A DNA stretch of 64,000 nucleotides. Origin: Collybia mongolica. Taxonomy: Eukaryota > Basidiomycota > Agaricomycetes > Agaricales > Clitocybaceae. Within the stretch, counting starts at the first letter, position 1; every line of letters begins with the position of its first letter. Below the pieces are notes generated by a model. That model saw nothing but the letters and a program-made list of their open reading frames with translations, had not been told where the DNA came from and searched no databases. The position numbers and the translations under genes are program-made. Shown here piece after piece: positions 1 through 64,000 of this stretch. Where the stretch lies: NCBI GenBank assembly GCA_013420905.1, contig JAAXNY010000003.1:1-64000 (forward strand). The letters run 5' to 3'.

Positions 1-95
1 CTAACCCTAACCCTAACCCTAACCCTAACCCTAACCCTAACCCTAACCCTAACCCTAACCCTAACCCTAACCCTAACCCTAACCTAACCCTAACC
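1..95. repeat. Terminal telomere tract, (CCCTAA)n
   Basis: Perfect CCCTAA hexamers run from the first base to about position 83, then become irregular (CCTAACC variants) and merge into the start of the first retroelement. The C-rich strand reads inward from the left, so this is a left chromosome end whose G-rich 3' overhang lies on the minus strand. The TTAGGG repeat is common to most filamentous fungi and basidiomycetes. Confidence 0.95.
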
Positions 96-532
96 TAACC
101 GAACCTAACCCTAACCGGTTAACCCAACTTAACCCGCCTGAGCCGGACCGGACTTTGATCCGATCACCGACCCGACATGGACGGTTAAAGGCCACGTGCC
201 CGGTCCGAAATGACCGTGACGTGTGAAAGGTTACTAATCATTATAGCTGACCGGAGTAATCCGTTCGGCTTTGTTCCCACAGGTTGTCAAGGTCGTTAAT
301 AGACGGTCGCCGATTGGTGCCCAACACACTGCCTTCGGGCAGAGTTAGTAAGCCCGCTTCGGCGATGTCGTGTTCTATTCCGATCTGCCAGACGCTATGG
401 AAGCGACTGCGCATCTGTCATGCGCGCAAATGGCCATTGGCCGCCTCTGACAGGTAGATGACTAAGTATCCCGACTTTAGCCTAACTCCGGAACAAAGCT
501 AAAGTCCGCAGCAACCCGTATACACCCTAAAA

Positions 533-598
533 CCGATCTGAAGAGTCTTAAAAGACGAAAGGATCCGACCGGTGGTCTCCTCCATCGATCCTTATCGG
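533..598 (+). ncRNA. Type I hammerhead ribozyme (PLE1)
   Basis: All core elements of a hammerhead are visible. Stem I is CCGAT (533-537) with ATCGG (594-598), extended by an A532-T599 pair. The core is CTGAAGA (538-544), matching CUGANGA. Stem II is GTCT/AGAC with loop TAAA (545-556). GAAA lies at 557-560. Stem III is GGATC (561-565) with GATCC (587-591), capped by an inner GGTGG/CCATC hairpin. Then come U16.1 and H17 (TT, 592-593). Predicted cleavage is between 593 and 594. Hammerheads are known in many Penelope-like elements. Confidence 0.88.
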
Positions 599-627
599 TA
601 ATTTTCGCCTACTCAACTATATCCTCC

Positions 628-652
628 AACAAAAACGCTTCGCGTTTTTGTT
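628..652 (+). ncRNA. PLE1 3'-terminal hairpin
   Basis: A perfect 11-bp stem (AACAAAAACGC with its complement) closes a TTC loop. It lies 34 nt after the hammerhead cleavage site and just before GTCGTCCACCCTAACCC. The loop region GCTTCGC is shared with the otherwise unrelated PLE2 terminal hairpin. It may be the handle by which the RT recognises the 3' end of its RNA, or a transcript-stabilising structure; this role is inferred. Confidence 0.75.
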
Positions 653-670
653 GTCGTCCACCCTAACCCA

Positions 671-677
671 TATATAG
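671..677 (+). promoter_or_regulatory. TATA-like box before the PLE1 ORF
   Basis: TATATAG lies immediately after the pseudo-LTR and 95 nt before the ORF ATG, in a 96-nt leader (670-765) that ends in a C-rich tract. It is the only TATA-like element close to the start and is repeated in the second PLE1 copy. Promoter function is inferred; PLE promoters may also lie in the pseudo-LTR. Confidence 0.35.
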
Positions 678-765
678 CATTCAGTTCCCCGCCTTTGACT
701 ACACGTACCGTACTCCCCTTCGCACCAAATTACTTCAGGGACCCCCCCTCCAGTTTTTAGTCAGT

Positions 766-1879
766 ATGTCATCTTTCGCTAGAGCTTTCTCCCCGCTCGC
801 TGCAGCCTCCGTCATCATCGATGGGGATGTAACGAGCTCGGCATCACAGATGGCCCGTCATATCGTCCTGCAAGGGGCTAATACGATTGACGAGCTCATT
901 TCCCTGATCCCGTCTGACTATCGTCAGGTCCTTCGCGAGCCCCTTATGGGCGTCCGCACTACAACTGAAAAGTTGATTGCGGCGCGAACCACTCTTGCCA
1001 AGTGGCAGCAGCATGAGGCTGCTGGGACATATCCCACGATCTTACGATCTAAAGCCCCCGAAGTCCAAATGAGCAAGGACTTCGGCGCGGACGCCCAAGC
1101 CGCGGCCCATAAAGCCGCCCTTGACGCCGCCCATAAGAAATACCTCGCGGAGAATCTCACCAACATGATCCGCGCCAAGACAGACGAGGTCACTTTCCTA
1201 AGTGAGGCTATTAAACCGAGGAACCTGTTCAAGGAACTTCAGCCGATAGTGGAAGCCCACTATTCGCAGCGCCTGAAAGCATCGGAGGTACCGATGTTTG
1301 TTACCAACGCGGCCGGGGAACCGGAGTTGCAGGGGTTTAAGATGAGCGACGCGCAGTTCGAACTTGGCAAACAAGTCAGGGACGACTGCGTCGTGTATGC
1401 CTACCGTGTAGTTACCATCACGGAAATGCAGGAGGACGCACGGGCCCTCCGCTTTAAGAAAAAGGTAACGCTCAAGCAAGCGGCTGACGTTGAGATGACC
1501 GATCTCTCCGGCAATGACAAATCGACGGTACAGTCGATGGTCGACAAAGCAGTAGCCGCCCAAATGAAAAAGCTCAACGCTGCGAAGGCCTCCGGTAAAG
1601 GCGCCAAGGGAAAAGTAAGTGCTAACGCATTCGCTTCTTCTTCTCGGCTAACTTTAGACTCCCCTTTAGGATCAGGGGAAGAAGTCCAAGCCTTCGCCCA
1701 ATCGCAACAACACCGCCGCCGGTTCATCGAAGCTGAAACGCTCGAGGGCCGCCGAACCATACGTACCCAAACCGGCCAAGAAGGCCAGGGTATCGGCAGT
1801 TCGGGGCGGGAAACCTCTCCGCGGAGGCAACCGCGGTCGAGGCGGCAAGCCGGGTCGAGGACAGGGACGGGGCCGGTAG
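766..1879 (+). CDS. PLE1 spliced ORF1 with RGG-rich tail, 352 aa (join 766..1614,1670..1879)
   Basis: This is an alternative product of the same start. Removing the 55-nt intron (phase 0, after codon 283) shifts frame into a 69-residue tail that ends at TAG 1877-1879. The tail begins DQGKKSKPSPNR, contains a bipartite-like basic cluster (PAKKARVSAVRGGK) and ends in repeated RGG/GRG (GGNRGRGGKPGRGQGRGR). Such tails usually bind RNA or act in nuclear import. The equivalent splice in the divergent PLE2 family also gives a basic tail and a stop, which argues that this frame is real. The protein would be an ORF1 without RT. Splicing itself is predicted from sequence only. Confidence 0.7.
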
Positions 1880-4167
1880 ACACGCGTCTATCCCCCAATG
1901 TCGTATTCCGGTACGATCATCCCTCTACCTACCCGGATTTCATACTAACGTTATCTTACCCGGACGCTATTAATTACATATTATTACGTACTCCTGTAAA
2001 CATTATTACGGCATCCCAGTATAAATCATATGTTCACCGCTCCCCTGAAGTAAGCTTGCCAATCGAAATCGAACATGACCTTAGTGTGGGAATGAACTTT
2101 ATGTTCCCCACACCGCGCAACACTCAACTATTGAAAGATGCGTGGAACGACTTCGATCGAAGAATTCGCTGGCGTCTTAAGTTTACGTTCGAAAACGACG
2201 ACGCCCCCTATGATCCCGACTTTGAGGTACCTCACATATCAACGGCAGAACCCCCAAAGTTACCCAGCTATCTCGAATTAGGACTCACCCGTGGCCGCGG
2301 CTTCGTATATGAAACGATCCGCAATATGCCCCGTGAAGAAGCAAAGGGCCGCCTTTACTCGTTAGAGCCCAATGTATCCCGCATTCGAAAGTTCTTGTTT
2401 GATAACAAATACGTGGTTACGAACACAGATAAGAACCTGGGAATAGCTGTATCTAAACGAGACTGGATCATAGAAAAATGTTTAGATCTATTGGCCGATG
2501 AAAGTAATTATCTACCTTTACACGAGCTAGTAGCAAATAGTTATTTAAAAACTCAATGTACCCAAATGGAGGAAATAGCAAAGCTTTGCGAAGCGCATAT
2601 CTCCAACCCGCAAGTCTGCACCTTTATGCGACATCAAATAACCCCGAAAGGGGAAAAGCACAACGTTCCCATCTTTTACGGAATTCCCAAAATACACAAG
2701 GAACCCGTCAAGATGAGGCCCATCATTCCATGTCATAGTGCGATCCAAAACCCTGCGGCGAAGTACGTGAGTAAAATCCTTAAACCGATTGTGAAATCGG
2801 CACCAACCGTTATACACGGAACAAAAGACTTGGTGTTAAAATTAAGGCAGGTAAAATTCCAACGTGGACGACGATTCTACATCGTTACCGGCGACGTAGT
2901 CGCTTTCTACCCAAATATACCCATAGAGAGATGTTTTGAGGTCATACTCAATCTCTACGAGAGGCACTACTTTGGCGAAAGTTTCGACACGTGTAAAGAC
3001 CGGCTTACCAAACAAGAGTTACATGAATACGACATCTTTGTTCGGTGTCTCACGACTGGAAACAGTAACCTGATCACACAGTTTCAAGATAAATTCTATA
3101 AACAAACGCGCGGCCTAGCTATGGGCGTTGCGTCTTCTCCGGACTTAGCCAATCTATTTGGCTGGTTCTTCGAAGAATCTTGTGGAATCTTGACTAACAC
3201 GCTCGTACCTTTTTACGGGCGCTACATCGATGATTGCGCGGCGATTGTATATGCTTCCTCAGAAGCGGAAGCACTCAATCACCTCGCGTGTGTTCAATTC
3301 GATGGCTGTGTTATTGAATGGAACGTGTCGGAATCGCATCAGCCTTTCCTGGACTTAACCCTGTATCGCGATCAATATTCGGAGTTACAGTGGATGCCCT
3401 ATCGCAAAGCACGTTCGCATCAAGAAAGAATCCCATGGATTTCTTCCCACCCCCTAGATGTGAAACGGGGGACATTCGTGGGAGAAATGTCACGGCTGGC
3501 CACACTCTGTAGTCTTTATACACACTACCAGGACGCTATATCGGGCTTGGCTGCCCTTTATATTAAACGTGGTTATCCAGCTGACTTGGTCTATTCCTGG
3601 ATTAAGCATAATGTACGAGAACGGTGGGAAAAACGCCATTCTGAGTCACGGCAACGCTCTAGTGACATTCTTGTGCTTAAGTCCGAATATAACCTTGCGT
3701 GGGATTACTTTAACGCTAAGAAACTCGGAGATACAGTTCTCGGAACCTGGCGGGGTTGGATTAACGCCGCCACACATAACCGATATGGTATTGTGTTCCC
3801 GAAATTCAGTTCGGATCTTCACGGTCTGAAGTCCTCGGTTGAGGAGTTTAACTCTTTGATCGAGACGGCGGATGGGCTCGCGCCTATCCCTGACATTACG
3901 AAAATAGGTTTCGACAAACGTCGATTCATCGTGTCCAAGAAGCGGACACGCAATTTATTTGACCTTACTAGTCTTTGGAAAAAAATTGTATTATCCAAGA
4001 TGGAAGAACAAGCTCTGGAACAGAATATGTCCCTAGAATCTAACGATGACGAACCAGCTAATGACTCTAGTGATGACACTAGCTCGACCGGTTCTCTAGA
4101 AAGACAAAATCTGTCGTTCCTATACAATATCCGCGGCGAACCCACTCGAGTGGAGGACGTCGTGTGA
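766..4167 (+). CDS. PLE1 ORF1-reverse transcriptase, intron-retained form, 1133 aa
   Basis: This is an endonuclease-lacking Penelope-like reverse transcriptase. Residues 1-283 form an Ala/Lys-rich N-terminal region, probably an ORF1-like nucleic-acid-binding part. RT motifs follow: a TDKNLG pre-RT motif; FYGIPKIHK and RPIIPCHSA; motif A with catalytic Asp710 in TGDVVAFYPNIP; motif B GLAMGVASSPDLANL; motif C YIDD at 820-823 with Asp822/823; and FLDLTLYRD. A post-RT block (MPYRKARSHQERIPW, then HPLDVKRGTF) precedes an acidic C-terminus. There is no GIY-YIG domain after the RT. The ATG at 766 is the first in the leader. The frame stays open only if the 55-nt intron at 1615 is retained. Confidence 0.92.
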   Translation: MSSFARAFSPLAAASVIIDGDVTSSASQMARHIVLQGANTIDELISLIPSDYRQVLREPLMGVRTTTEKLIAARTTLAKWQQHEAAGTYPTILRSKAPEVQMSKDFGADAQAAAHKAALDAAHKKYLAENLTNMIRAKTDEVTFLSEAIKPRNLFKELQPIVEAHYSQRLKASEVPMFVTNAAGEPELQGFKMSDAQFELGKQVRDDCVVYAYRVVTITEMQEDARALRFKKKVTLKQAADVEMTDLSGNDKSTVQSMVDKAVAAQMKKLNAAKASGKGAKGKVSANAFASSSRLTLDSPLGSGEEVQAFAQSQQHRRRFIEAETLEGRRTIRTQTGQEGQGIGSSGRETSPRRQPRSRRQAGSRTGTGPVDTRLSPNVVFRYDHPSTYPDFILTLSYPDAINYILLRTPVNIITASQYKSYVHRSPEVSLPIEIEHDLSVGMNFMFPTPRNTQLLKDAWNDFDRRIRWRLKFTFENDDAPYDPDFEVPHISTAEPPKLPSYLELGLTRGRGFVYETIRNMPREEAKGRLYSLEPNVSRIRKFLFDNKYVVTNTDKNLGIAVSKRDWIIEKCLDLLADESNYLPLHELVANSYLKTQCTQMEEIAKLCEAHISNPQVCTFMRHQITPKGEKHNVPIFYGIPKIHKEPVKMRPIIPCHSAIQNPAAKYVSKILKPIVKSAPTVIHGTKDLVLKLRQVKFQRGRRFYIVTGDVVAFYPNIPIERCFEVILNLYERHYFGESFDTCKDRLTKQELHEYDIFVRCLTTGNSNLITQFQDKFYKQTRGLAMGVASSPDLANLFGWFFEESCGILTNTLVPFYGRYIDDCAAIVYASSEAEALNHLACVQFDGCVIEWNVSESHQPFLDLTLYRDQYSELQWMPYRKARSHQERIPWISSHPLDVKRGTFVGEMSRLATLCSLYTHYQDAISGLAALYIKRGYPADLVYSWIKHNVRERWEKRHSESRQRSSDILVLKSEYNLAWDYFNAKKLGDTVLGTWRGWINAATHNRYGIVFPKFSSDLHGLKSSVEEFNSLIETADGLAPIPDITKIGFDKRRFIVSKKRTRNLFDLTSLWKKIVLSKMEEQALEQNMSLESNDDEPANDSSDDTSSTGSLERQNLSFLYNIRGEPTRVEDVV
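1615..1669 (+). other. PLE1 regulated intron, 55 nt
   Basis: The donor is the ideal GTAAGT, the branch site CTAAC lies 17 nt before the acceptor, and the acceptor is CCTTTAG. The length is not a multiple of three, so splicing changes the downstream frame. The intron has no in-frame stop, so retention also gives an open frame. A second AG at 1657 would give a stop after three codons. Confidence 0.75.
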
Positions 4168-4678
4168 ACTTAACCTGTTGCCCCGGTCCAAGTTGATCGG
4201 GCGCTTTGGGGCGTAGCAGCGTGTGAGCTTCTTGCCATCCCTGGTCGGAGTTAACCTATCAGATCTCTATCGGTCCCACGACCGCTGGTCTTATGACAGC
4301 GTGAGTCTAAGTAGTCCAATGTGGCGAAAAGCAGCCGAATTTGATCGGCGGAGATATACCGGTAGATCCCCTTCCCTGTGCGGGGAACTCCTTAGACCCG
4401 GAACGGCTCGCTTACGTGCGTGCGTTTGTTTACCCTCGGGGACGCTCTTGTTGCGGCCCGTGGGTATTGTTTCCATCTATTCTTAGCGGTAAAAATTAAA
4501 CCGTTGTTGATACTTTGTAAGTACCACGATTTATGTCCTAACGACAGACGGTATTAACCGAGGCTCTTAGAGACATACTAACCCTAACTCTAACCCTAAC
4601 CGTGAGTACTTGTTTGCTTAATGCATCCGATCTACGTCAATCTGACATTGAACGAATTAGCTAACCCGAACCCTAACC
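4168..4678 (+). other. PLE1 3' untranslated/linker region
   Basis: This is non-coding sequence between the RT stop and the 3' pseudo-LTR. It ends in two internal telomere-like tracts (about 4577-4602 and 4661-4710) of CTAACCC-type repeats. No other gene is supported; the short frames in it are not conserved features. Confidence 0.6.
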
Positions 4679-5252
4679 TAACCGAACCTAACCCTAACCG
4701 GTTAACCCAACTTAACCCGCCTGAGCCGGACCGGACTTTGATCCGATCACCGACCCGACATGGACGGTTAAAGGCCACGTGCCCGGTCCGAAATGACCGT
4801 GACGTGTGAAAGGTTACTAATCATTATAGCTGACCGGAGTAATCCGTTCGGCTTTGTTCCCACAGGTTGTCAAGGTCGTTAATAGACGGTCGCCGATTGG
4901 TGCCCAACACACTGCCTTCGGGCAGAGTTAGTAAGCCCGCTTCGGCGATGTCGTGTTCTATTCCGATCTGCCAGACGCTATGGAAGCGACTGCGCATCTG
5001 TCATGCGCGCAAATGGCCATTGGCCGCCTCTGACAGGTAGATGACTAAGTATCCCGACTTTAGCCTAACTCCGGAACAAAGCTAAAGTCCGCAGCAACCC
5101 GTATACACCCTAAAACCGATCTGAAGAGTCTTAAAAGACGAAAGGATCCGACCGGTGGTCTCCTCCATCGATCCTTATCGGTAATTTTCGCCTACTCAAC
5201 TATATCCTCCAACAAAAACGCTTCGCGTTTTTGTTGTCGTCCACCCTAACCC
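4679..5252 (+). repeat. PLE1 copy 1, 3' pseudo-LTR
   Basis: Second copy of the direct repeat (offset 4583 from the 5' one), with a hammerhead at 5116-5181 and a hairpin at 5211-5235, ending CCACCCTAACCC. It abuts the 5'-truncated PLE2 stub. Confidence 0.85.
5116..5181 (+). ncRNA. Type I hammerhead ribozyme (PLE1)
   Basis: Same fold and sequence as the copy at 533: stem I CCGAT/ATCGG, core CTGAAGA, stem II GTCT/AGAC, GAAA, stem III GGATC/GATCC. Cleavage is predicted between 5176 and 5177, releasing a tail of about 76 nt that carries the terminal hairpin and CCCTAACCC. Confidence 0.87.
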
Positions 5253-5625
5253 TAAATTTTAACGAATAATAGCCTAACCCTAACCGCTAACCTTTAACCT
5301 TAAAGGCTAAGTAGCCGGGCCGATGGGGCCCGGCGCCTAAGTATAGCGCGGCTAAAAGAAGATAAGATCCAGGCACGAGATCCATCTTCTTTATTGATCC
5401 GCGTCGGTGAATAGCTAACCGAAATTGATCCGCGTATCGGATAAATACTAAGGTAGGGCGGGCCACTATGGACCGCGTTCCATGCGCGTCGAGCGCGCAT
5501 GCCAGCGCACACCCCCTCACATGGCGCAACATGTGTCTGAGGGGTTTACGCTGTGGTCGCTCGGAAAAACCGCGCGCGCGCCGTAACGGTGCGGCGGCGT
5601 GAGCGGAGAAACTGATTAAACATTA

Positions 5626-5698
5626 ACAAACAGGCCTGATGAGTACTTATACGAAACAGGTCGGGTGGGGGATTCCCCCAACCCTGTTGCTTGTTTGT
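5626..5698 (+). ncRNA. Type I hammerhead ribozyme (PLE2)
   Basis: Stem I is a 10-bp helix, ACAAACAGGC (5626-5635) with GCTTGTTTGT (5689-5698), including one G-U pair. The core is CTGATGA (5636-5642). Stem II is GTA/TAC with loop CTTA. GAAA is at 5653-5656. Stem III is CAGG/CCTG, capped by a GGGGG/CCCCC hairpin with loop ATT. TT at 5687-5688 gives U16.1 and H17. Cleavage is predicted between 5688 and 5689. The sequence is unlike the PLE1 ribozyme outside the invariant core. Confidence 0.88.
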
Positions 5699-5726
5699 AA
5701 CGCAACTCATCGTACCAAAGTCACTC

Positions 5727-5749
5727 GCAACCTCGCTTCGCTCGGTTGC
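5727..5749 (+). ncRNA. PLE2 3'-terminal hairpin
   Basis: GCAACC pairs with GGTTGC around an inner GC-TTC-GC, with a two-base internal mismatch. It lies 38 nt after the hammerhead cleavage site and just before CGTTCCACCCTAACCC, the same position as the PLE1 hairpin. Confidence 0.65.
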
Positions 5750-5770
5750 TCGTTCCACCCTAACCCTAAA

Positions 5771-6057
5771 CTTTGTGATGGCAGAGGGGGGGGGGGGGCT
5801 ATGTAACGTGGGGGAGGGGGGGCGCGGAGCTGTATCATACTTACGACGCGGCAACAGAAGCCATATAACGCAAGCAGAGATGACGAGAACGCATATGTAA
5901 AGTCTGTTGTGGGGCACATGCTAGGCGTGGTGGGGGGCGGCGGCGACCGAGAAAGAAACGAGGCCCGAGGAGTACAAGACGTTATGCCTTTCGTAGCACT
6001 CATGAGTCAGGCGAAAGTATATCCATCCCTAAAGTTCAGACTCACCGAAATCCCTTT
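5771..6057. other. 3' flank of the 911-codon gene, with a G run
   Basis: No gene seen. It begins at the PLE junction (CTTTGTGATGGCAG) and contains a run of about 13 G (5786 onward) and a second G-rich run. Unit C shows the same sequence continuing leftward into poly-T tracts, so the break here fell next to homopolymers. Confidence 0.6.
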
Positions 6058-8793
6058 CTAGACGACTCGTGAACTGAGACGGAGGAATTCTGCGGCCAGC
6101 TGCTCACTGCCTCGAATCCAGGCGACCGTTTTCGTCTCGTAGTGCTTGACCTTTTCCTTCCACTTCTTTGAGCCTTTAATGTCCAACGCTTTCTTTTCGA
6201 AATCCTGCAACCGCAGCTGGTAGAAATTCTCAGCGGCGGGCGACCATTGATCACCGTAAAGTCCCGACGACTTCCAAATCAGGTGCTTGGGCCACCACGA
6301 CGCATGAGTGACGGTGCCTTTGTTGGTAGCGTCGGGGATGTGGTAAACGCCGCTAACAATGTCTAGAATCTCCTCGCTGATACCGTCATCAAGGAAGTAC
6401 TTGTCGCCATGCTGTGCAATAACCTGATCGCATGAGGAAGGTCCATCAAGCACAGTGGAATCTGAGACGTGGCCAGACGCGAGTCTCCAGACGATTCCAC
6501 CAAGCATTCTCAGGACGCGACCCCTGGACGATGAGAAAACGTTCTCTCGCGCAAGTAGGTAAGCGTTGTAGTCGTTGTCATCCGGCTGATAGGTAATTGT
6601 GCGAAAGCCGAGTCCTGTCGACTTAGACCTCCAGAGAGATTTCGGTGGCAATGTATCCGTCTCGATGACGGTACGAAAGGGAATAGCCAATTCCAGCAGG
6701 CCACGCGCGATCTCGAGCATTGTCGCCCAGCCCCTGCGGTATACCAAGAGAACTGCTGTTGCGCTCCACAGAGCAACATACCAAGGGGATGGATCGTCCG
6801 ACTTGGCAGGCGGACGGAGAATGTAGACCGTCGAAGCGTCCTGATCAATGCGCTGGAGCCTAACCCTGGAGAGGTCGCAGATGAAACTGGGAGCTTCTAA
6901 TTTACGGCTTATGTCCCAGGACGGCGGCAGTTGGCGATAGCTCAATGTATAGTTCCCCGATGTGTTGTAAAAGTCGACGAGCGCCCTTAAGGCCAGTGGC
7001 GGGAGCGCTTCTTGAGAATACAGAAGGAATTTAAGGACCTCCAAGTGCTTCTCTCGCTGCTGGGCATATTTTCCGCCATGAACCTGCGGGTTCCAACTGG
7101 ATCCTTGCAGTAACAGGTCGAAGCCGTGTCTTCTGCGGAGGTACTCGACCACACTCAAAATGGAGAGCGTGTAAGGCATCGGAGGAGCAGCTTCCACCGC
7201 AGGCTTGAACATTGCATCGCGAACGTCTTTCGACTGTGCTGGGAGGGGTGCAACAGGAATGTCGTTCGACTGCTCGGGTAATCTTAGAACGGGAATGTCT
7301 TTCAAATGTTCCGGAAATGGGGGTGGTATTATATCATCGTAGTCGTCGTCGTAACCATAGGGATCACGGTTTATCCCATATTTCTCGGGGTGTTTTTCTC
7401 CTGGTGGGGGAGGCAGATGATGAACGAGATCCCATTCGTTACAGTATGACCAATAGAATCTACCCCACGCGTGTGTGTCCATGAATTCGAAATCCGCCTC
7501 TGCTTTCGTCACAATTGTCCGGCGATAAACGGTTGGGTCTTCTTCGTCTTTCTCCCAAACATAAACCGTGGATGTCTTACTCGGCCCGCTCTTGGTGGCA
7601 TAAGCTTCCCGGGACTCGCGACTCTGCTTCTCTGTAGGAGTCTCCACCTGAATCCGATGTTGTTGGGCTTTCTCTTTCCGTGCTTTGAAAGTTTCCCAGT
7701 CCTCTCCGGGCTTCTGACCAGACAGTGGATTGACGATCATCCTTCGATCAACAGGTGGAGGAGGAAGCTCCTCGTCATCCCATCGAGCATTCCCACGCAT
7801 AAGGTCAGATGGATCGTCGGGCAAGGTGATTGGGGCACCGGAACTAGGGATGGATGATATGGTGCCTTCGAACTTATATGTTCTTCTAGTGGGAAGCACG
7901 ATAGAGTCGTACTGAGCTACTCGTCGTTGCGCAATCTCAATGTAATCATCAGGTGGGTAGAATTCTACAAGCATATGAGCGTCCTGAGCCTGAATGTCCT
8001 TAACACCATGTCCCCATATGAACCATATCGGTACGCTGGCGCGGCAGAAATAAACCAGGTACGGACCCCATCTGGTTGCGTACGGATCAAGGAATGCGCC
8101 GGGTCGCAAACCCGGCGACAGATCACCAACGACGGACTCCTGGAGGAGATGGAGCCACGATCGAGATATGGGATCCAGGGCGCGGGTGGCGAGTCTAACA
8201 AACGCGTTTTGAAAGCAATTATCCTCGAATTCTCCCAACCATAGAGACAGCGCGAATGTAGTGCAGGCGGACATGACTCTAAATGCCCATATCGCTCGTC
8301 TGGCGCATACAATGGTTAACTCCTGTGTTTGATGAACATCGCGATAGCCTTGCTGCATAGGCCAAAGGGGCCAGGAGATCTTCGGGAACAAGTGGGCTTT
8401 TGGATGTTTTGCCATCAGGTAGAAGATAACGTCATGTAACGAGTCCTCCAGAGCAATCCATCGATTCATGAAACCTTGTTCCAGCACAAAGGACGAGTGT
8501 GTGCCAGGGACATGAATGGCGGCCTTCTTAAGCTCGGAAGGCGTGACAGCCAAAACCGAAAATATTGGCCCGTGGTGAATGGCCTTTTTCGGGTAATACG
8601 CCATGTATATCTCAGAATCTGAGAGAAAACACGTCGCGTTTGGGTCACCTTTAGGTTGGCGTGGGGAAGGCGATGAAGTGTGGATGGGGAGGGTACGACT
8701 ATATGGCGAGACTACGAGCCCTGATTGATTATGCCACATGAGGTGGCGGTGGACTTCTGGCAGTCGGCGTCGCTCGAAGCTCCGATCGTTCAT
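6058..8793 (-). CDS. Hypothetical protein, 911 aa, intronless
   Basis: This is a long uninterrupted ORF on the minus strand. The frame is open up to 8823, but the first ATG is at 8793. I recognise no catalytic domain. The N-terminal ~260 residues are hydrophobic-aromatic (HGPIFSVLAV, FVLEQGFMNRWIALEDSLHD). The middle (about 330-530) is charged and Pro-rich (PPPPVDRRM, DDDYDDIIPPPFPEH). The C-terminal part is Trp-rich (SWWPKHLIWKSSGLYGDQWSP). The style resembles large hypothetical families expanded in mushroom-forming fungi (from memory, not checked). An identical copy is at 60597-63332 and a decayed fragment at 39679. It is possibly a domesticated or mobile subtelomeric gene. Confidence 0.85.
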   Translation of the reverse strand: MNDRSFERRRLPEVHRHLMWHNQSGLVVSPYSRTLPIHTSSPSPRQPKGDPNATCFLSDSEIYMAYYPKKAIHHGPIFSVLAVTPSELKKAAIHVPGTHSSFVLEQGFMNRWIALEDSLHDVIFYLMAKHPKAHLFPKISWPLWPMQQGYRDVHQTQELTIVCARRAIWAFRVMSACTTFALSLWLGEFEDNCFQNAFVRLATRALDPISRSWLHLLQESVVGDLSPGLRPGAFLDPYATRWGPYLVYFCRASVPIWFIWGHGVKDIQAQDAHMLVEFYPPDDYIEIAQRRVAQYDSIVLPTRRTYKFEGTISSIPSSGAPITLPDDPSDLMRGNARWDDEELPPPPVDRRMIVNPLSGQKPGEDWETFKARKEKAQQHRIQVETPTEKQSRESREAYATKSGPSKTSTVYVWEKDEEDPTVYRRTIVTKAEADFEFMDTHAWGRFYWSYCNEWDLVHHLPPPPGEKHPEKYGINRDPYGYDDDYDDIIPPPFPEHLKDIPVLRLPEQSNDIPVAPLPAQSKDVRDAMFKPAVEAAPPMPYTLSILSVVEYLRRRHGFDLLLQGSSWNPQVHGGKYAQQREKHLEVLKFLLYSQEALPPLALRALVDFYNTSGNYTLSYRQLPPSWDISRKLEAPSFICDLSRVRLQRIDQDASTVYILRPPAKSDDPSPWYVALWSATAVLLVYRRGWATMLEIARGLLELAIPFRTVIETDTLPPKSLWRSKSTGLGFRTITYQPDDNDYNAYLLARENVFSSSRGRVLRMLGGIVWRLASGHVSDSTVLDGPSSCDQVIAQHGDKYFLDDGISEEILDIVSGVYHIPDATNKGTVTHASWWPKHLIWKSSGLYGDQWSPAAENFYQLRLQDFEKKALDIKGSKKWKEKVKHYETKTVAWIRGSEQLAAEFLRLSSRVV

Positions 8794-9740
8794 ATTGTAA
8801 CGTATCGTCGATCTACTGTACAAATGGGCCGCAATATAGACTAAATACGTGCTGAGTGTAATGAAGCCGATTGCTACGGATTGCCTGACAGGCGCGACGA
8901 AGTACAGCTAAGCAAGAGGCAATGGAAAACTGATGGAGACTATCAGCGATGCACGGCAGGACAATCATCACGGACGTACGGAGCTCCAACTGACCCGAAA
9001 CCTTTTCTATGAACGACCGAAGATCCCCAGGGGCAGTCTAACGGAAGAGCACAAGGTAACTCTTGAAACGTTACGCGAGTACGATCGTGTTCAGAGGGCC
9101 GCCAGCACAGGTGAGGCGTCGAGAAAGAAGGAGTAGTGTCAGGAGCAAACCCCGCAACTCTACTGTAGAACGAAGAGAGAAGATGGTATTGGGAGCAGGC
9201 CCCGCAACACCAAGTGGATCGTTGTTGAGGTCGTCGTGGTGTGGTGAAAGGTCGGTGGGGATGGGGTGGAAAGGAAGAAGTGACGAAAACGCGCCCAAAG
9301 AACAATTCAACAGTCAGGTGACAACTTATCGCCGAGATCACCGAGTCTGGAACACCGGCGGTCTATCGGTTCAATTATCGGACTCGTCACTTGTTCCGCA
9401 ACCTGTTCCGCTCCCACCACTACACAACGTACGGGGTCTGCCCCTGCGTCTGCCTTATACATCTCGGACTACTACAGCGTACGGGGTCTGCTCCTGCGCC
9501 TGTATCTCTTGTCGCCCGATTCCTCCATCCAAACTCGACACCCGAGGTTCGTCGAACCTCGCCGTTCTCGTGCATCGGGGCCCACTCCAGCCCACACAAA
9601 CTCCTGCGCCTACTCAAAAACTCAACTTCGCCTGTAAAGGGAGACATACTCACACCATATGACAAGGTTCATTAACTGAGCGTCGTCTCGCTCATGCTGA
9701 CCCACTCTATCACGTAGGTTCTATATACAATCCCCACCGC
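8794..9740. repeat. Block R, forward copy (large inverted-repeat arm)
   Basis: Non-coding. About 8890-9740 is an inverted match of 20838-21620, and related inverted copies lie near 24330-25110, 38739-39500 and 43640-44420. A direct copy is at 63430-64000. It contains P2 hairpins near 9137, 9189, 9426 and 9474 and a perfect P1 palindrome at 9543-9561. Short frames here are present in all copies but lack the codon constraint expected of a gene. Confidence 0.7.
9543..9561. repeat. P1 palindrome, perfect copy
   Basis: The sequence is CGAGGTTCGTCGAACCTCG: 9-bp inverted arms around a central T. It is one of at least 20 P1 sites in unit A alone. Confidence 0.85.
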
Positions 9741-28651: not shown

Positions 28652-29522
28652 ATGGTCTCTGTTCGCGATACAGTCGAAAAGTGGCGTTCCCACCAAGCCG
28701 CTGGCACTACTCCTGCAACGTTCGCGTCTAAGGCGCCCGAAATCCAATTCTCCAAGGATTTCGTTGAGTCATTCGAAGCTGACGAAGCCAAGAAACGACT
28801 TCTTGATGCTCACAAAAAGTATCAGGCTGAGATCTTCAAGGACGCTCTCGTCGCCAAAGAAGTCGAGCTCACAACGCTGCAAACCTCCCTCGAGCCTAAG
28901 CAACTCTACAACCGACTCATCGTCCCCGTCACCGACACCAGCAAGGTCGAGATGGCGCGCAGGAAGCGACCTATCCTCGAGGACGGTGATGAAGAAGGAG
29001 AGGTTAAGATCACAGGTTGGGTACCGGACCCTGCGTCCAAATCTAACTACCTTTTAGTCGCCCGTGATCTCCCTATCATCGGACTCCGCGTCGTCTCCCT
29101 CGTGGAGGCGGCCCACCTTGCCGTCACTAAGAAGAAAGAGGCTAAGAAGGATCTCCGAGACAAGATGGATGTCGACGACGGTGATGATGCCGTCAAGCAG
29201 AAGGACTTAAGTAAGTTAGTCCAGAAGGCCGTCGACCAAGCCATCAAGAAGAGGACTCCCGCGCCCAAGGTACGTCACCGCGGTCGCTCACACTCTCATG
29301 TTCTGACTTCTTCCCCTCAAGGATCTCCGATTCAAGAAGGGAGCCGCCAAGAAGTCGTCCTCCTCTACCGCCCCCAAGAAGACCGCCTCCAAGAAGAAGG
29401 CTCCTCAACCGCGCCAAGCCGCAAAGCTCGCCGCGATGAAGAAGAATGGCAAAGGTCTCAAGGGGAAAGGGAAGGCTGGGAAGCCTGGCCCTCGGGGAGC
29501 CAAGAAGTCGTCGTCCAAGTAG
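28652..29522 (+). CDS. PLE2 spliced ORF1 with Lys-rich tail, copy A (join 28652..29269,29322..29522)
   Basis: Removing the intron at 29270 shifts frame into a 66-residue histone-H1-like tail (DLRFKKGAAKKSSSS, APKKTASKKKAP, KGLKGKGKAGKPG, GAKKSSSK) ending at TAG 29520-29522. Predicted 272 residues in this truncated copy. It parallels the RGG-rich tail of PLE1, with different residues but the same charge and the same position. Confidence 0.68.
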
Positions 29523-48551: not shown

Positions 48552-49665
48552 ATGTCATCTTTCGCTAGAGCTTTCTCCCCGCTCGCTGCAGCCTCCGTCA
48601 TCATCGATGGGGATGTAACGAGCTCGGCATCACAGATGGCCCGTCATATCGTCCTGCAAGGGGCTAATACGATTGACGAGCTCATTTCCCTGATCCCGTC
48701 TGACTATCGTCAGGTCCTTCGCGAGCCCCTTATGGGCGTCCGCACTACAACTGAAAAGTTGATTGCGGCGCGAACCACTCTTGCCAAGTGGCAGCAGCAT
48801 GAGGCTGCTGGGACATATCCCACGATCTTACGATCTAAAGCCCCCGAGGTCCAAATGAGCAAGGACTTCGGCGCGGACGCCCAAGCCGCGGCCCATAAAG
48901 CCGCCCTTGACGCCGCCCATAAGAAATACCTCGCGGAGAATCTCACCAACATGATCCGCGCCAAGACAGACGAGGTCACTTTCCTAAGTGAGGCTATTAA
49001 ACCGAGGAACCTGTTCAAGGAACTTCAGCCGATAGTGGAAGCCCACTATTCGCAGCGCCTGAAAGCATCGGAGGTACCGATGTTTGTTACCAACGCGGCC
49101 GGGGAACCGGAGTTGCAGGGGTTTAAGATGAGCGACGCGCAGTTCGAACTTGGCAAACAAGTCAGGGACGACTGCGTCGTGTATGCCTACCGTGTGGTTA
49201 CCATCACGGAAATGCAGGAGGACGCTCGGGCCCTCCGCTTTAAGAAAAAGGTAACGCTCAAGCAAGCGGCTGACGTTGAGATGACCGATCTCTCCGGCAA
49301 TGACAAATCGACGGTACAGTCGATGGTCGACAAAGCAGTAGCCGCCCAAATGAAAAAGCTCAACGCTGCGAAGGCCTCCGGTAAAGGCGCCAAAGGAAAA
49401 GTAAGTGCTAACGCATTCGCTTCTTCTTCTCGGCTAACTTTAGATTCCCCTTTAGGATCAGGGGAAGAAGTCCAAGCCTTCGCCCAATCGCAACAACACC
49501 GCCGCCGGTTCATCGAAGCTGAAACGCTCGAGGGCCGCCGAACCATACGTACCCAAGCCGGCCAAGAAGGCCAGGGTATCGGCAGTTCGGGGCGGGAAAC
49601 CTCTCCGCGGAGGCAACCGCGGTCGAGGCGGCAAGCCGGGTCGAGGACAGGGACGGGGCCGGTAG
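48552..49665 (+). CDS. PLE1 spliced ORF1, copy 2, 352 aa (join 48552..49400,49456..49665)
   Basis: Same spliced form as copy 1, ending at TAG 49663-49665. One A-to-G difference between the copies in the overlap is silent in this tail frame (AAA/AAG, Lys) but changes Thr to Ala in the read-through frame, which is a small hint of constraint on the tail. Confidence 0.7.
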
Positions 49666-52975: not shown

Positions 52976-53044
52976 TAAATTTCGCCTACTCAACTATATC
53001 CTCCAACAAAAACGCTTCGCGTTTTTGTTGTCGTCAACCCTAAC

Positions 53045-54140
53045 CTCGCCAACATCTCCCTCTCCGATGTTGATCCTCACTTTGGGGTTAAACAATCTCA
53101 AGCGTCGACCGCGAGACAGGCATCTTCGAACACTGTGTCCCAGGACACGGCTCGTTCTCACCTGTACTTCGGGGCTAACAACCTCGACGAACTACTCCAC
53201 ACCATCCCGGGTGAGTACGTTCAGTGCTTGACTGAGCCCCTCAAAGGCATTCGCGCCACTGCACAACGCATGGTCTCTGTTCGCGATACAGTCGAAAAGT
53301 GGCGTTCCCACCAAGCCGCTGGCACTACTCCTGCAACGTTCGCGTCTAAGGCGCCCGAAATCCAATTCTCCAAGGATTTCGTTGAGTCATTCGAAGCTGA
53401 CGAAGCCAAGAAACGACTTCTTGATGCTCACAAAAAGTATCAGGCTGAGATCTTCAAGGACGCTCTCGTCGCCAAAGAAGTCGAACTCACAACACTGCAA
53501 ACCTCCCTCGAGCCTAAGCAACTCTACAACCGACTCATCGTCCCCGTCACCGACACCAGCAAGGTCGAGATGGCGCGCAGGAAGCGACCTATCCTCGAGG
53601 ACGGTGATGAAGAAGGAGAGGTTAAGATCACAGGTTGGGTACCGGACCCTGCGTCCAAATCTAACTACCTTTTAGTCGCCCGTGATCTCCCTATCATCGG
53701 ACTCCGCGTCGTCTCCCTCGTGGAGGCGGCCCACCTTGCCGTCACTAAGAAGAAAGAGGCTAAGAAGGATCTCCGAGACAAGATGGATGTCGACGACGGT
53801 GATGATGCCGTCAAGCAGAAGGACTTAAGTAAGTTAGTCCAGAAGGCCGTCGACCAAGCCATCAAGAAGAGGACTCCCGCGCCCAAGGTACGTCACCGCA
53901 GTCGCTCACACTCTCATGTTCTGACTTCTTCCCCTCAAGGATCTCCGATTCAAGAAGGGAGCCGCCAAGAAGTCGTCCTCCTCTACCGCCCCCAAGAAGA
54001 CCGCCTCCAAGAAGAAGGCTCCTCAACCGCGCCAAGCCGCAAAGCTCGCCGCGATGAAGAAGAATGGCAAAGGTCTCAAGGGGAAAGGGAAGGCTGGGAA
54101 GCCTGGCCCTCGGGGAGCCAAGAAGTCGTCGTCCAAGTAG
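53045..54140 (+). CDS. PLE2 spliced ORF1 with Lys-rich tail, copy B, partial (join 53045..53887,53940..54140)
   Basis: Same frame switch and Lys-rich tail as copy A, ending at TAG 54138-54140; 347 residues from the junction. The intron differs by one base between the copies (in the segment after the donor), while the tail is unchanged by eye. Confidence 0.68.
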
Positions 54141-56551
54141 GCGACGACACTACTGTATTTGATTTACCGCCGCCGAATCCATCATTCCGGTACGAGAATC
54201 CTTACACTTGGCCTGACTGGTTGCTAACCATTCCATACCCACTTGCGCGCTCGTATATATTGTTAAATACACCCATATTTGTAATTGATGCCAATAGATA
54301 TAAGAATGTCATCCATCGCGCACCTGGTGTGAATCTCCCGAAAAACATCGAGTATGACTTATCTGTCGGAATGAATTATATGTTTAAGTCAGAAAGAAAC
54401 TCTAAATTAATTCTAGACGCCTGGAAAGATTTCTCGCGTCGCCTGAGATGGCGCCTATACTTTGCCTTCTCCAACCCAGAATCTAACTCTCTCTATGACC
54501 CAGACTATGAACTTAACCGCCCCCCCTCAGGAAAAGTTCCTCTGTTACCAGACTATATCGAGCTAGGGATCCGTCGTGGTCAGTACTTTGTGGAAAACAC
54601 AATCGCTAAAATACCCGCGGAAGAAGCTGCGCCGTCAACGCCCCGGCCTAACACTACCCGAATTCGAAGGTGGCTGTTAGATAACAACTATGTCCTAACA
54701 CCCACCGATAAAAATCTTGGCATTTCGGTGTCTAGGCGTGACTGGCTAATAGAGAAATGTAAGGAGCTCCTTGATGATGAAACTAATTATAAGATGTTAC
54801 ATCCTCTCATCGCCGCCACCTACATTAAGAAAACAATCGAACAAATGGACGAGCTTGCCCAAAAGGCTATGCTCTTAAGCGACGAACCCTGTGACCAGCT
54901 ATTGGATTGGTTCCGTCAATTCATACCTGATGCTGGAGAAACGTATGATCTCGCAAACTTGCCATGTTTCTATGGTATCCCTAAGATACATAAACAGCCT
55001 GTTAAAATGCGACCTATAATACCCTGTCACTCGGCGGTCATGAATCCAGCCGCTAAATTTGTTTCGAAAAAACTCAAACCGCTCATCAAAGCGGCGCCAT
55101 CCATTATACATGGTACCAAAGACTTGGCGATCAAATTGAGTAAGGTTACTATTTCAAATCGGAAGAAATTCTTTATCGTCACGGGCGACATTGTTGCCTA
55201 CTATCCTAATATACCAATTCAACGTTGTATAGATATTGTTACCGACATGTATCTTGAATATATCACCGGACTGGATCCTGACTACATCAATTTCATGCAC
55301 CTTGACGAGCACGTACTGCGTGGCCTTCAGGCATTCATACTTGCACTAGAAGTTGGGAATCGTAACCTTATATTTCGCTTTCAAAAATATATATACCTTC
55401 AATTACATGGACTCGCAATGGGAGTAGCGGATTCCCCGGATCTCGCGAACCTCTACGGGGTCTTTTTTGAAAAGAAATGCAACATTTTGAACGACCCGAG
55501 AATACCTTTCTACGGTCGATACATAGATGATTGTTTAGCAATTGTGTATGCTGCCTCTGCTGATGAGGCCCTTCGCATTGTTAAAACACTTGAAATCGAA
55601 TCTTGCGAAATTGAGTGGTCCGCGTCTGATAGACAAGCGCCGTTCCTGGATATGATGTTATACATTGATATGCAGAACCGTTTGCAACACATGCCCTATC
55701 GGAAAAGTGGATCGCATCAGGAAAGAATTCCATGGATCTCTCACCACCCTCTAGATGTAAAAAGAGGAACTTACGTGGGTGAGATGTCCCGTTTAGCCAC
55801 CCTGAGTAGTACATTTCAGAACTACCGGAACGCTATAGACTCGCTTCGTGCGCTCTATATACAGCGTGGCTATCCAGTGAAATTAGTATTGCAGTGGACT
55901 TCGGTCAATATGGCAGAACGATGGCAGAAACGTCTATCAGAGTCTAAGGGTTCTGGAGAGCTAGACAGTGTTCTGGTGCTTAAGTCTGAATTCAATACTG
56001 CTTGGAATTACTTCTCTGCTCGAGAATTGGGTAACACAATCACGGATTTCTGGTCGTTATGGCTAAACCATAACCAGGCAGCTACGGAGGGGAATCGCTT
56101 ACCCCCCATAGAGTTCCCACAATTATCTGGATCTTTGGGCAAGTTGGCCGATGGAGTCCCGGAGGCGTACACTGTGCGTCTTCAGGTCACTAACGGTACG
56201 ACGACCTCAATACCAGATATACGGAAACTAGATATCCTAAGGCGCCGATGGATTGTCAGCCGCAAACGCACTCTCAATCTCTTCGACCTCGTAAACCTTT
56301 GGAAAAAGATTGTTATCGAACACTTAGACAAGGATGCAGCACGAAAGGCTGTACCCAATGAGCCCGTGGGTAACCCCCAGAATACGGTAGTAAGAACTAT
56401 AAACCCCACTCCTAACATTGTGAACAGGGAACGGATCGAAACCATTCACACGCGCGAGCGTGCGGACTCAGAGTTGGACCCCTTCGTCCTTGCTTGGAAC
56501 CAAGGTTTTAGGCTCGGAGTGAACGCGGACCCTACTGGAGTAACTCTCTAA
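53045..56551 (+). CDS. PLE2 ORF1-reverse transcriptase, copy B, partial at 5' end, about 1168 aa
   Basis: The frame is open from the element junction (LANISLSDVDPHFGVKQ) with no start codon of its own. By alignment with PLE1 (GANNLDELLHTIPGEY against GANTIDELISLIPSDY) only a short N-terminal stretch is missing. RT motifs as in copy A, with few substitutions between the copies. No endonuclease domain. Intron 53888-53939 must be retained. Confidence 0.88.
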   Translation, partial: LANISLSDVDPHFGVKQSQASTARQASSNTVSQDTARSHLYFGANNLDELLHTIPGEYVQCLTEPLKGIRATAQRMVSVRDTVEKWRSHQAAGTTPATFASKAPEIQFSKDFVESFEADEAKKRLLDAHKKYQAEIFKDALVAKEVELTTLQTSLEPKQLYNRLIVPVTDTSKVEMARRKRPILEDGDEEGEVKITGWVPDPASKSNYLLVARDLPIIGLRVVSLVEAAHLAVTKKKEAKKDLRDKMDVDDGDDAVKQKDLSKLVQKAVDQAIKKRTPAPKVRHRSRSHSHVLTSSPQGSPIQEGSRQEVVLLYRPQEDRLQEEGSSTAPSRKARRDEEEWQRSQGEREGWEAWPSGSQEVVVQVGDDTTVFDLPPPNPSFRYENPYTWPDWLLTIPYPLARSYILLNTPIFVIDANRYKNVIHRAPGVNLPKNIEYDLSVGMNYMFKSERNSKLILDAWKDFSRRLRWRLYFAFSNPESNSLYDPDYELNRPPSGKVPLLPDYIELGIRRGQYFVENTIAKIPAEEAAPSTPRPNTTRIRRWLLDNNYVLTPTDKNLGISVSRRDWLIEKCKELLDDETNYKMLHPLIAATYIKKTIEQMDELAQKAMLLSDEPCDQLLDWFRQFIPDAGETYDLANLPCFYGIPKIHKQPVKMRPIIPCHSAVMNPAAKFVSKKLKPLIKAAPSIIHGTKDLAIKLSKVTISNRKKFFIVTGDIVAYYPNIPIQRCIDIVTDMYLEYITGLDPDYINFMHLDEHVLRGLQAFILALEVGNRNLIFRFQKYIYLQLHGLAMGVADSPDLANLYGVFFEKKCNILNDPRIPFYGRYIDDCLAIVYAASADEALRIVKTLEIESCEIEWSASDRQAPFLDMMLYIDMQNRLQHMPYRKSGSHQERIPWISHHPLDVKRGTYVGEMSRLATLSSTFQNYRNAIDSLRALYIQRGYPVKLVLQWTSVNMAERWQKRLSESKGSGELDSVLVLKSEFNTAWNYFSARELGNTITDFWSLWLNHNQAATEGNRLPPIEFPQLSGSLGKLADGVPEAYTVRLQVTNGTTTSIPDIRKLDILRRRWIVSRKRTLNLFDLVNLWKKIVIEHLDKDAARKAVPNEPVGNPQNTVVRTINPTPNIVNRERIETIHTRERADSELDPFVLAWNQGFRLGVNADPTGVTL
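53888..53939 (+). other. PLE2 regulated intron, copy B
   Basis: GTACGT donor, CTGAC branch, CCCTCAAG acceptor, 52 nt, phase 0. Confidence 0.75.
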
Positions 56552-63332: not shown

Positions 63333-64000
63333 ATTGTAACGTATCGTCGATCTACTGTACAAATGGGCCGCAATATAGACTAAATACGTGCTGAGTGTAA
63401 TGAAGCCGATTGCTACGGATTGCCTGACAGGCGCGACGAAGTACAGCTAAGCAAGAGGCAATGGAAAACTGATGGAGACTATCAGCGATGCACGGCAGGA
63501 CAATCATCACGGACGTACGGAGCTCCAACTGACCCGAAACCTTTTCTATGAACGACCGAAGATCCCCAGGGGCAGTCTAACGGAAGAGCACAAGGTAACT
63601 CTTGAAACGTTACGCGAGTACGATCGTGTTCAGAGGGCCGCCAGCACAGGTGAGGCGTCGAGAAAGAAGGAGTAGTGTCAGGAGCAAACCCCGCAACTCT
63701 ACTGTAGAACGAAGAGAGAAGATGGTATTGGGAGCAGGCCCCGCAACACCAAGTGGATCGTTGTTGAGGTCGTCGTGGTGTGGTGAAAGGTCGGTGGGGA
63801 TGGGGTGGAAAGGAAGAAGTGACGAAAACGCGCCCAAAGAACAATTCAACAGTCAGGTGACAACTTATCGCCGAGATCACCGAGTCTGGAACACCGGCGG
63901 TCTATCGGTTCAATTATCGGACTCGTCACTTGTTCCGCAACCTGTTCCGCTCCCACCACTACACAACGTACGGGGTCTGCCCCTGCGTCTGCCTTATACA
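63333..64000. repeat. Block R, direct copy of 8794-9461
   Basis: Continues the unit A/C duplication to the window edge, with the same P2 hairpins. No gene. Confidence 0.65.

What the first reader, a model, noticed from the sequence alone, without database searches (positions are those of the whole stretch)
766..1879. Splicing switch: PLE1 intron retention gives ORF1-RT, splicing gives ORF1 with an RGG-rich basic tail
A consensus intron (GTAAGT, CTAAC, TTTAG; 55 nt, phase 0) sits between the N-terminal region and the RT. Retained, the frame runs unbroken through the RT. Removed, the frame shifts into a 69-residue tail with a nuclear-localisation-like cluster and RGG repeats, then TAG. This would set the ratio of nucleic-acid-binding protein to polymerase by splicing, as retroviruses do by frameshifting. 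Introns in Penelope-like elements are known; I do not know of this dual-frame use being described.
Basis: partly seen in the sequence, partly recalled or inferred. Interest (0 to 1): 0.88.

Follow-up and report, generated by a model that had tools for sequence, protein, structure and literature searches.

The report
Transposon intron choosing between two proteins
A telomere-dwelling fungal jumping gene appears to carry one tiny optional intron: left in, the message reads on into a reverse transcriptase; cut out, the same DNA is read in another frame and adds a positively charged tail to the first protein instead.

Summary
PLE1 has a 55-nt consensus intron (1615-1669, phase 0). Retained, the 766-4167 frame runs unbroken through the RT. 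Removed, the frame shifts into a 69-residue K/R/G-rich tail ending at TAG 1877-1879. A second family in the window, PLE2 (33% identical in ORF1, 53% in RT), has the same layout: intron 53888-53939, 52 nt, phase 0, 66-residue K-rich tail, TAG just before the RT domain. The 10 PLE1 and 9 PLE2 copies examined across the site all keep the intron, with both frames open there. Collybia nuda gene models carry both kinds of tail at 58-63% identity, as conserved as exon 1. In the shared stretch, PLE1 changes favour the tail frame, not the RT frame; in the PLE1 intron they favour the retained frame. PLE2 gives no significant bias in either. Of 120 listed relatives, 98 read ORF1-RT through in one frame, 63 with the donor visible as K-V-[SRCG]. 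Splice-controlled Gag versus Gag-Pol is known in copia, BARE and EVD; new, as far as I could search, is its use in Penelope-like elements with a conserved overlapping tail. No RNA data were available, so the isoforms and their ratio are inferred.

The parts
1..78 (+). CCCTAA telomere repeats at the contig end, abutting the 5' end of PLE1
79..669 (+). PLE1 upstream terminal repeat (pLTR-like)
   Evidence: 99.7% identical to 4661-5252
766..1614 (+). PLE1 exon 1: ORF1 N-terminal domain, 283 aa, predicted elongated helical protein
   Evidence: model pLDDT 87.7, pTM 0.72
1615..1669 (+). facultative intron, 55 nt, phase 0; when retained it codes 18 residues of the ORF1-RT linker
1670..1879 (+). exon 2 tail frame: 69-aa K/R/G-rich tail and TAG; the same DNA is the RT-frame linker when the intron is retained
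1615..4167 (+). retained frame: intron-coded linker, overlap linker, RT domain (conserved from FRYDHP at 1906); no GIY-YIG match
4661..5252 (+). PLE1 downstream terminal repeat
49401..49455 (+). same intron in the second PLE1 copy (ORF 48552-51953)
49456..49665 (+). tail frame of the second PLE1 copy
53135..53887 (+). PLE2 exon 1 (ORF1; the listed ORF starts at a GTG, the true start was not determined)
53888..53939 (+). PLE2 facultative intron, 52 nt, phase 0 (GTACGT, CTGAC, CAAG)
53940..54140 (+). PLE2 tail frame: 66-aa K-rich tail and TAG
53888..56551 (+). PLE2 retained frame into RT (conserved from FRYENP at 54185)
29270..29522 (+). intron and tail of the other PLE2 copy (ORF 28652-31933)
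   Evidence: (row L037)

Best explanation
PLE1 and PLE2 are telomere-associated Penelope-like elements without a recognisable endonuclease that make two proteins from one transcription unit through one inefficiently spliced intron. Spliced mRNA gives ORF1p: the helical N-terminal domain plus a basic NLS/RGG or K-rich tail, an abundant RNA-binding, Gag-like partner. Unspliced RNA gives an ORF1-RT fusion in which the tail is replaced by an unconstrained linker. The unspliced RNA is probably also the template for new copies, which would explain why the copies keep the intron. Shown here: the anatomy, conservation of the tail as protein, openness of both frames, intron presence in the 19 copies examined, coding constraint in the PLE1 intron. 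Inferred: splicing itself, the low RT:ORF1p ratio, nucleic-acid binding, template identity.
For: (1) Same intron position, phase 0, length 1 mod 3 and same basic-tail/TAG/RT order in two families 33%/53% identical. (2) Tail identity to Collybia nuda gene models equals exon-1 identity: PLE1 59-63% vs 52-62% (P0002, P0003, P0008); PLE2 58% vs 58% (P0129). For P0003, P0129 and the Phellinidium model P0006, 0 of 500 composition shuffles reach the tail score. (3) PLE1 and PLE2 tails resemble each other beyond composition (4 of 500 shuffles reach the score), the RT-frame linkers do not (208 of 500). (4) PLE1 tail changes: 13 synonymous/11 not in the tail frame (p 0.010) and 8/3 (p 0.004), against 3/21 and 2/9 in the RT frame; PLE1 intron changes: 8/2 and 3/0 synonymous in the retained frame (p 0.002, 0.03). 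(5) In the RT frame there is no ATG from the intron start to 2092 (PLE1) or 54371 (PLE2), both downstream of the conserved RT start. (6) 98 of 120 listed relatives (221 hits in all) are unbroken ORF1-RT; K-V-[SRCG], the in-frame reading of a fungal donor, is in the linker window of 63 of 98 against 6 and 2 of 98 in control windows. (7) The spliced junction of neither family is found in the genome, while the intron-bearing acceptor is found at 10 PLE1 and 9 PLE2 sites (positive controls).
Against: No RNA data. Relatives came from a full-length search, which favours unbroken fusions; 22 of 120 lack a detectable ORF1. PLE2 shows no significant bias: intron 4 synonymous/5 not (p 0.28), tail 3/2 in the tail frame (p 0.12). 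L012 against L013 tails: 7/10, p 0.21. RT-frame openness of the tails is only mildly unlikely by synonymous permutation (P 0.03-0.09), more so by codon-usage draws (P 0.003-0.02). Gene models may be prediction only, and their DNA was not seen; of the 11 proteins found by the two ORF1 searches 6 carry a basic tail, P0004 (Hydnomerulius) ends without one, P0005 and P0130 are partial, P0132 is short, P0007 is an intron-reading piece. Copies within a family are near-identical: 3 PLE1 and 2 PLE2 groups.
Confidence: 0.78

Rival explanations
1. The intron is always spliced; ORF1p with tail is the only product of this mRNA region, and the RT is reached from spliced mRNA by -1 frameshifting in the overlap or by reinitiation. 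The retained frame is open by composition.
For: A -1 shift would lead from the tail frame to the RT frame. PLE1 has an in-frame slippery-type heptamer GGGAAAA at the end of exon 1. RT-frame openness in K/R/G-rich DNA is not very improbable. At least four relatives (P0074, P0087, P0090, P0122) have a Met right at the tail/RT border.
Against: The heptamer is absent from the diverged PLE1 copies L013, L015 and L016 (L017 is cut off there) and no X XXY YYZ heptamer is in PLE2's tail frame. No RT-frame ATG at the border in PLE1 or PLE2. It does not predict a synonymous-biased PLE1 intron or intron-reading fusions across the relatives.
Confidence: 0.12
2. There is no splicing: the only product is the ORF1-RT fusion, and the tail frame is an accident of composition.
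For: The fusion frame is open across intron and tail in the 19 copies examined; no transcript evidence for splicing.
Against: Tails conserved as protein in C. nuda and between families, RT-frame linkers not; tail-frame selection in PLE1; donor, branch and acceptor kept in both families.
Confidence: 0.04
3. Both isoforms exist, but the retained form is not a tuned second product: intron retention is leaky splicing, and the open frame is kept because the unspliced RNA must encode a working RT in cis for its own copying. Ratio control is incidental.
For: The 19 copies examined keep the intron and no spliced retrocopy is found, so unspliced RNA, or an antisense template as proposed for Penelope in PMC3846280 (passages), is what gets copied.
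Against: Differs from the main reading only in whether the ratio matters; nothing here separates them.
Confidence: 0.06

Closest known systems
BARE1 (Ty1/copia, barley), PMC3735527 (passages seen)
   Same: Single ORF; a small 104-nt optional intron at the end of gag; splicing shifts the frame and stops, giving Gag only; unspliced RNA carries Gag and Pol in one frame.
   Different: LTR element; the shifted frame adds only about three residues, whereas here it is a conserved 66-69-residue basic tail overlapping the RT-frame linker.
EVADE (EVD) shGAG, Arabidopsis Ty1/copia, PMC8892269 (passages seen)
   Same: Spliced short RNA gives GAG, unspliced RNA gives GAG-POL; thought to give GAG in excess.
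   Different: LTR element; splicing is coupled to premature polyadenylation, which was not examined here.
Drosophila copia (as cited in PMC3735527 passages)
   Same: Alternative splicing yields a Gag-only RNA.
   Different: Removes 2950 nt, almost all of pol.
Endonuclease-deficient telomeric PLEs (Athena: named in PMC3846280 and PMC5408684 passages; Coprina: recalled, otherwise only in a search listing)
   Same: RT of Penelope kind, no GIY-YIG match, telomere-adjacent, terminal repeats; introns in PLEs are known (PMC3846280 passages).
   Different: No splice switch or dual-frame tail turned up in the papers I could search; the original Coprina paper (Gladyshev and Arkhipova 2007) was not held.
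Retroviral and Ty gag-pol frameshifting (recalled; summarised in PMC3735527 passages)
   Same: Sets structural protein against polymerase from one transcript.
   Different: Done by the ribosome, not by splicing; no conserved slippery heptamer here.

Membership tests
Endonuclease-deficient Penelope-like element | PLE-type reverse transcriptase | tested here: inconclusive
   221 homologous proteins; Pfam RVT_1 in 4 of 18 aligned members, none for PLE1 itself; motifs such as GDVVAFYPNIP and YIDD recognised from memory; no tree was built.
Endonuclease-deficient Penelope-like element | No GIY-YIG endonuclease domain | tested here: met
   No Pfam match other than RVT_1 in 18 members at E 0.01; no GIY-YIG (PF01541) match anywhere in the genome, while 12 of 14 control genomes ring. 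Many relatives bear precomputed PF26215 and PF28514, which the local library does not hold, so what these are is unknown to me.
Endonuclease-deficient Penelope-like element | Telomere-adjacent, 5' end toward the telomere | tested here: met
   Window starts in CCCTAA repeats that run straight into PLE1; copies on C7, C9, C11 and C17 lie at contig ends, others are further in.
Endonuclease-deficient Penelope-like element | Terminal direct repeats (pLTRs) | tested here: met
   79-669 and 4661-5252, 99.7% identical.
Coprina clade | Groups with Coprina in an RT phylogeny | not tested
   No named Coprina sequence was available as reference.
Splice-controlled Gag/Gag-Pol expression (BARE/EVD kind) | Unspliced RNA is one frame through both proteins | tested here: met
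Splice-controlled Gag/Gag-Pol expression (BARE/EVD kind) | Intron at the end of the first protein shifts the frame to a stop before pol | tested here: met
   55 and 52 nt, both 1 mod 3; TAG about 27 nt (PLE1) and 45 nt (PLE2) before the conserved RT start.
Splice-controlled Gag/Gag-Pol expression (BARE/EVD kind) | Both RNAs detected, Gag in excess | not testable with these tools
   No RNA data held.
Programmed -1 frameshifting | Conserved slippery heptamer (X XXY YYZ) leading into the RT frame | tested here: not met
   One in PLE1 at the exon 1 end, none in PLE2, lost in L013, L015, L016. Other kinds of shift site were not searched.

The most novel reading that the evidence does not exclude
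An ancient splice switch is built into a whole clade of mushroom-fungus Penelope-like elements. The second exon is dual-coded, as a selected nucleic-acid-binding tail in one frame and an RT linker in the other, and the intron itself codes for part of the polymerase fusion. The unspliced RNA is therefore at once polymerase mRNA and copying template, which would explain why PLE copies keep introns that other retroelements lose.
Probability: 0.6. Interest if true: 0.82.

Novelty: new variant of a known kind. Interest (0 to 1): 0.72.

Why it matters
How Penelope-like elements express and copy themselves is poorly known, and how they keep introns is left open in print (PMC3846280 favours an antisense template but does not exclude unspliced sense RNA; passages). 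An intron whose retention is required to make the RT ties template choice to RT expression and makes the question testable by splice-site mutation. It would also be a case, independent of LTR elements, of structural-protein versus polymerase output set by splicing, with an unusual overlapping, conserved tail.

Tried and rejected
Rejected: chance intron (same layout in PLE2); constitutive splicing with frameshifting (heptamer not conserved); ATG-led separate RT ORF in PLE1 or PLE2; amino-acid selection on the RT frame within the overlap (not seen).

Led nowhere: viral contigs and genome-contig scans found no relatives, so no DNA from other fungi could be examined and clade-wide statements rest on proteins only. 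Rfam gave nothing at E 1 in 1-6000, so no recognised hammerhead ribozyme. Pfam gave nothing for PLE1 itself. A profile of 18 fusions gave only a borderline match among solved structures, an entry named Drt3a reverse transcriptase at E 0.059. Fold search of the ORF1 model gave no match at E 0.001. V-[SRCG] without the K is uninformative: 97 of 98 in the linker but 92 of 98 in an RT control. Back-translating 91 of 98 linkers (7 dropped: no donor-like motif or linker outside 30-200 residues) gave tail-frame K+R 0.249 against 0.191 and 0.139 in controls, above both controls in 71 of 91: supportive but weak.

Literature: eight searches on Penelope-like elements listed no paper whose title or abstract start describes a splice switch in them; two more were for precedents. 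Only open-licence PMC is covered, and only passages of six papers were seen. Gladyshev and Arkhipova 2007, Craig 2021 and Arkhipova 2017 were not held, so prior description there cannot be excluded.

Full report
What is there. The window starts in CCCTAA telomere repeats, and a Penelope-like element (PLE1) lies directly against them. Its terminal repeats, 79-669 and 4661-5252, are 99.7% identical. One frame runs from ATG 766 to 4167 (1133 aa). Inside it, 1615-1669 is a fungal-type intron of 55 nt in phase 0; under the pattern used, 1615 is the only donor of the 3.4-kb ORF with a branch site and acceptor at the right spacing (codon shuffles average 0.21 such donors). Removing the intron shifts the frame into 69 residues rich in K, R and G, with TAG at 1877-1879, about 27 nt before the conserved start of the RT domain. 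The coordinates in the finding are right.

Copies of PLE1. A DNA search of the window's genome gave 11 matches including the window's own copy. Ten of the aligned copies span the intron. All ten keep it at exactly 55 nt, and both frames are open across intron and tail. The only indels among them between 766 and 4300, 6 nt gained in exon 1 and 9 nt lost in exon 2, are multiples of three. The ten fall into three sequence groups, so they are not ten independent tests. Some copies are damaged elsewhere (for example L030 and L054).

A second family. Searching the genome with PLE1 proteins found PLE2, 33% identical in ORF1 and 53% in RT. It has a 52-nt intron at the homologous place (53888-53939, GTACGT, CTGAC, CAAG), again phase 0 and 1 mod 3. 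Retained, the frame reads on into RT. Spliced, it gives a 66-residue lysine-rich tail ending in TAG, about 45 nt before the RT domain. The nine PLE2 copies that span the site (two sequence groups) agree; one, on C4, has its RT frame broken further on. One caution: the PLE2 ORF holds two other consensus-like donors near its 3' end.

The tail is a real protein segment. Gene models from Collybia nuda carry both tails: P0002, P0003 and P0008 match the PLE1 tail at 59-63% (exon 1 at 52-62%), P0129 matches the PLE2 tail at 58% (exon 1 at 58%). For P0003 and P0129, 0 of 500 composition shuffles reach the score. P0003 and P0008 also have the residues expected right after the PLE1 junction (K then DQ); P0002 has VDKK there. 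A Phellinidium model (P0006) shares the YIPKPAKxAR motif (0 of 500). A Schizophyllum model (P0131) has a basic tail that aligns only weakly (6 of 500). In all, 6 of the 11 proteins from the two ORF1 searches carry such a tail; P0004 (Hydnomerulius) ends without one, two are partial, one is short and one is an intron-reading piece. PLE1 and PLE2 tails resemble each other beyond composition (4 of 500), while their RT-frame readings do not (208 of 500). Whether the gene models rest on RNA evidence is not known to me, and their DNA was not seen.

Which frame is under selection where (each p is a binomial test on one pair, with each change judged singly; pairs share branches). Exon 1: ORF1 frame, as expected. 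Intron, PLE1: retained frame, 8 synonymous against 2 (p 0.002) and 3 against 0 (p 0.03). Intron, PLE2: 4 against 5 (p 0.28). Tail, PLE1: tail frame, 13/11 (p 0.010) and 8/3 (p 0.004), but 7/10 (p 0.21) for the L012-L013 pair; the RT frame in the same bases has 3/21, 2/9 and 0/17. Tail, PLE2: 3/2 (p 0.12) in the tail frame, 1/4 in the RT frame. So in PLE1 the overlap is read for its tail and the RT frame only has to stay open. Keeping the tail protein and permuting its codons leaves the RT frame open in 3-9% of trials, and in 0.3-2% if codons are drawn from the element's own usage.

The clade. A search with the fusion protein gave 221 hits, 120 listed, most without an organism name. 98 of the 120 contain ORF1 and RT in one unbroken frame. 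Their linkers differ widely, yet K-V-[SRCG], which is what AAG|GTRNGT reads as in frame, appears in the linker window in 63 of 98 against 6 and 2 of 98 in control windows. Caution: the search favours full-length proteins, and 22 of 120 lack a detectable ORF1, some starting inside the linker. No DNA of these relatives could be fetched.

How it most likely works. Spliced mRNA makes ORF1p: a helical N-terminal domain (AlphaFold pLDDT 87.7, pTM 0.72; no significant solved relative) plus a basic tail suited to RNA binding and nuclear import. Unspliced RNA makes ORF1-RT without the tail. The RT domain cannot easily be started separately: between the intron and its conserved N-terminus there is no ATG in frame. 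Frameshifting is unlikely because the one slippery heptamer is not conserved. The intron is in the 19 copies examined. Neither spliced junction occurs in the genome, while the intron-bearing acceptor is found at 10 PLE1 and 9 PLE2 sites by the same kind of search. So the copied RNA is either the unspliced sense RNA or, as PMC3846280 suggests for Penelope, an antisense one. Splicing, ratio, RNA binding and template are inferences.

Compared with what is known. Splice-controlled Gag versus Gag-Pol exists in copia, BARE1 (104-nt intron, frameshift, stop) and Arabidopsis EVD (passages). This works like those, in another class of retroelement, and adds a conserved tail coded in the shifted frame. 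I found no description for Penelope-like elements in eight searches of open-licence papers; the key Coprina paper was not held. Placement as an endonuclease-deficient telomeric PLE rests on telomere position, terminal repeats, absence of a GIY-YIG match in 18 members and in the whole genome and RT motifs known from memory; no tree was made.

Noticed in passing
proteins P0074, P0087, P0090, P0122: In these relatives a Met followed by S or N sits exactly at the tail/RT border. ATG-A there would overlap a TGA of the tail frame, so some lineages may use stop-restart translation for the RT instead of intron retention.
   Followed up: no
window 1608-1614: GGGAAAA, an in-frame slippery-type heptamer at the end of exon 1, is present in PLE1 but lost in L013, L015 and L016 and absent from PLE2; a -1 shift there in spliced mRNA would reach the RT frame.
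   Followed up: partly
window 1656-1657 and 1674-1675: Two further AGs near the main acceptor: the first would end ORF1 after three extra residues, the second keeps the tail frame but drops two residues.
   Followed up: no
window 627-653 and 5210-5236: A near-perfect palindrome (CAACAAAAACGCTTCGCGTTTTTGTTG) near the 3' end of each PLE1 terminal repeat, also seen just before the PLE2 copy near 53005.
   Followed up: no
window 6058-8823 (-) and 60597-63362 (-); 17605-20270 and 35506-38171: Large near-identical ORFs in duplicate (921 aa; 461 and 393 aa), pointing to recent segmental duplication in the subtelomere.
   Followed up: no
L030 and L054: Decayed PLE1 copies with one in-frame stop each in the matched stretch.
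   Followed up: no
proteins P0072, P0076, P0079, P0085, P0088, P0089, P0091: A subclade whose RT-frame linker holds a conserved string (about LASF[IV]QEA..xW.PE..W..xGA), possibly the image of a conserved tail in the other frame, or a linker that became functional itself.
   Followed up: no
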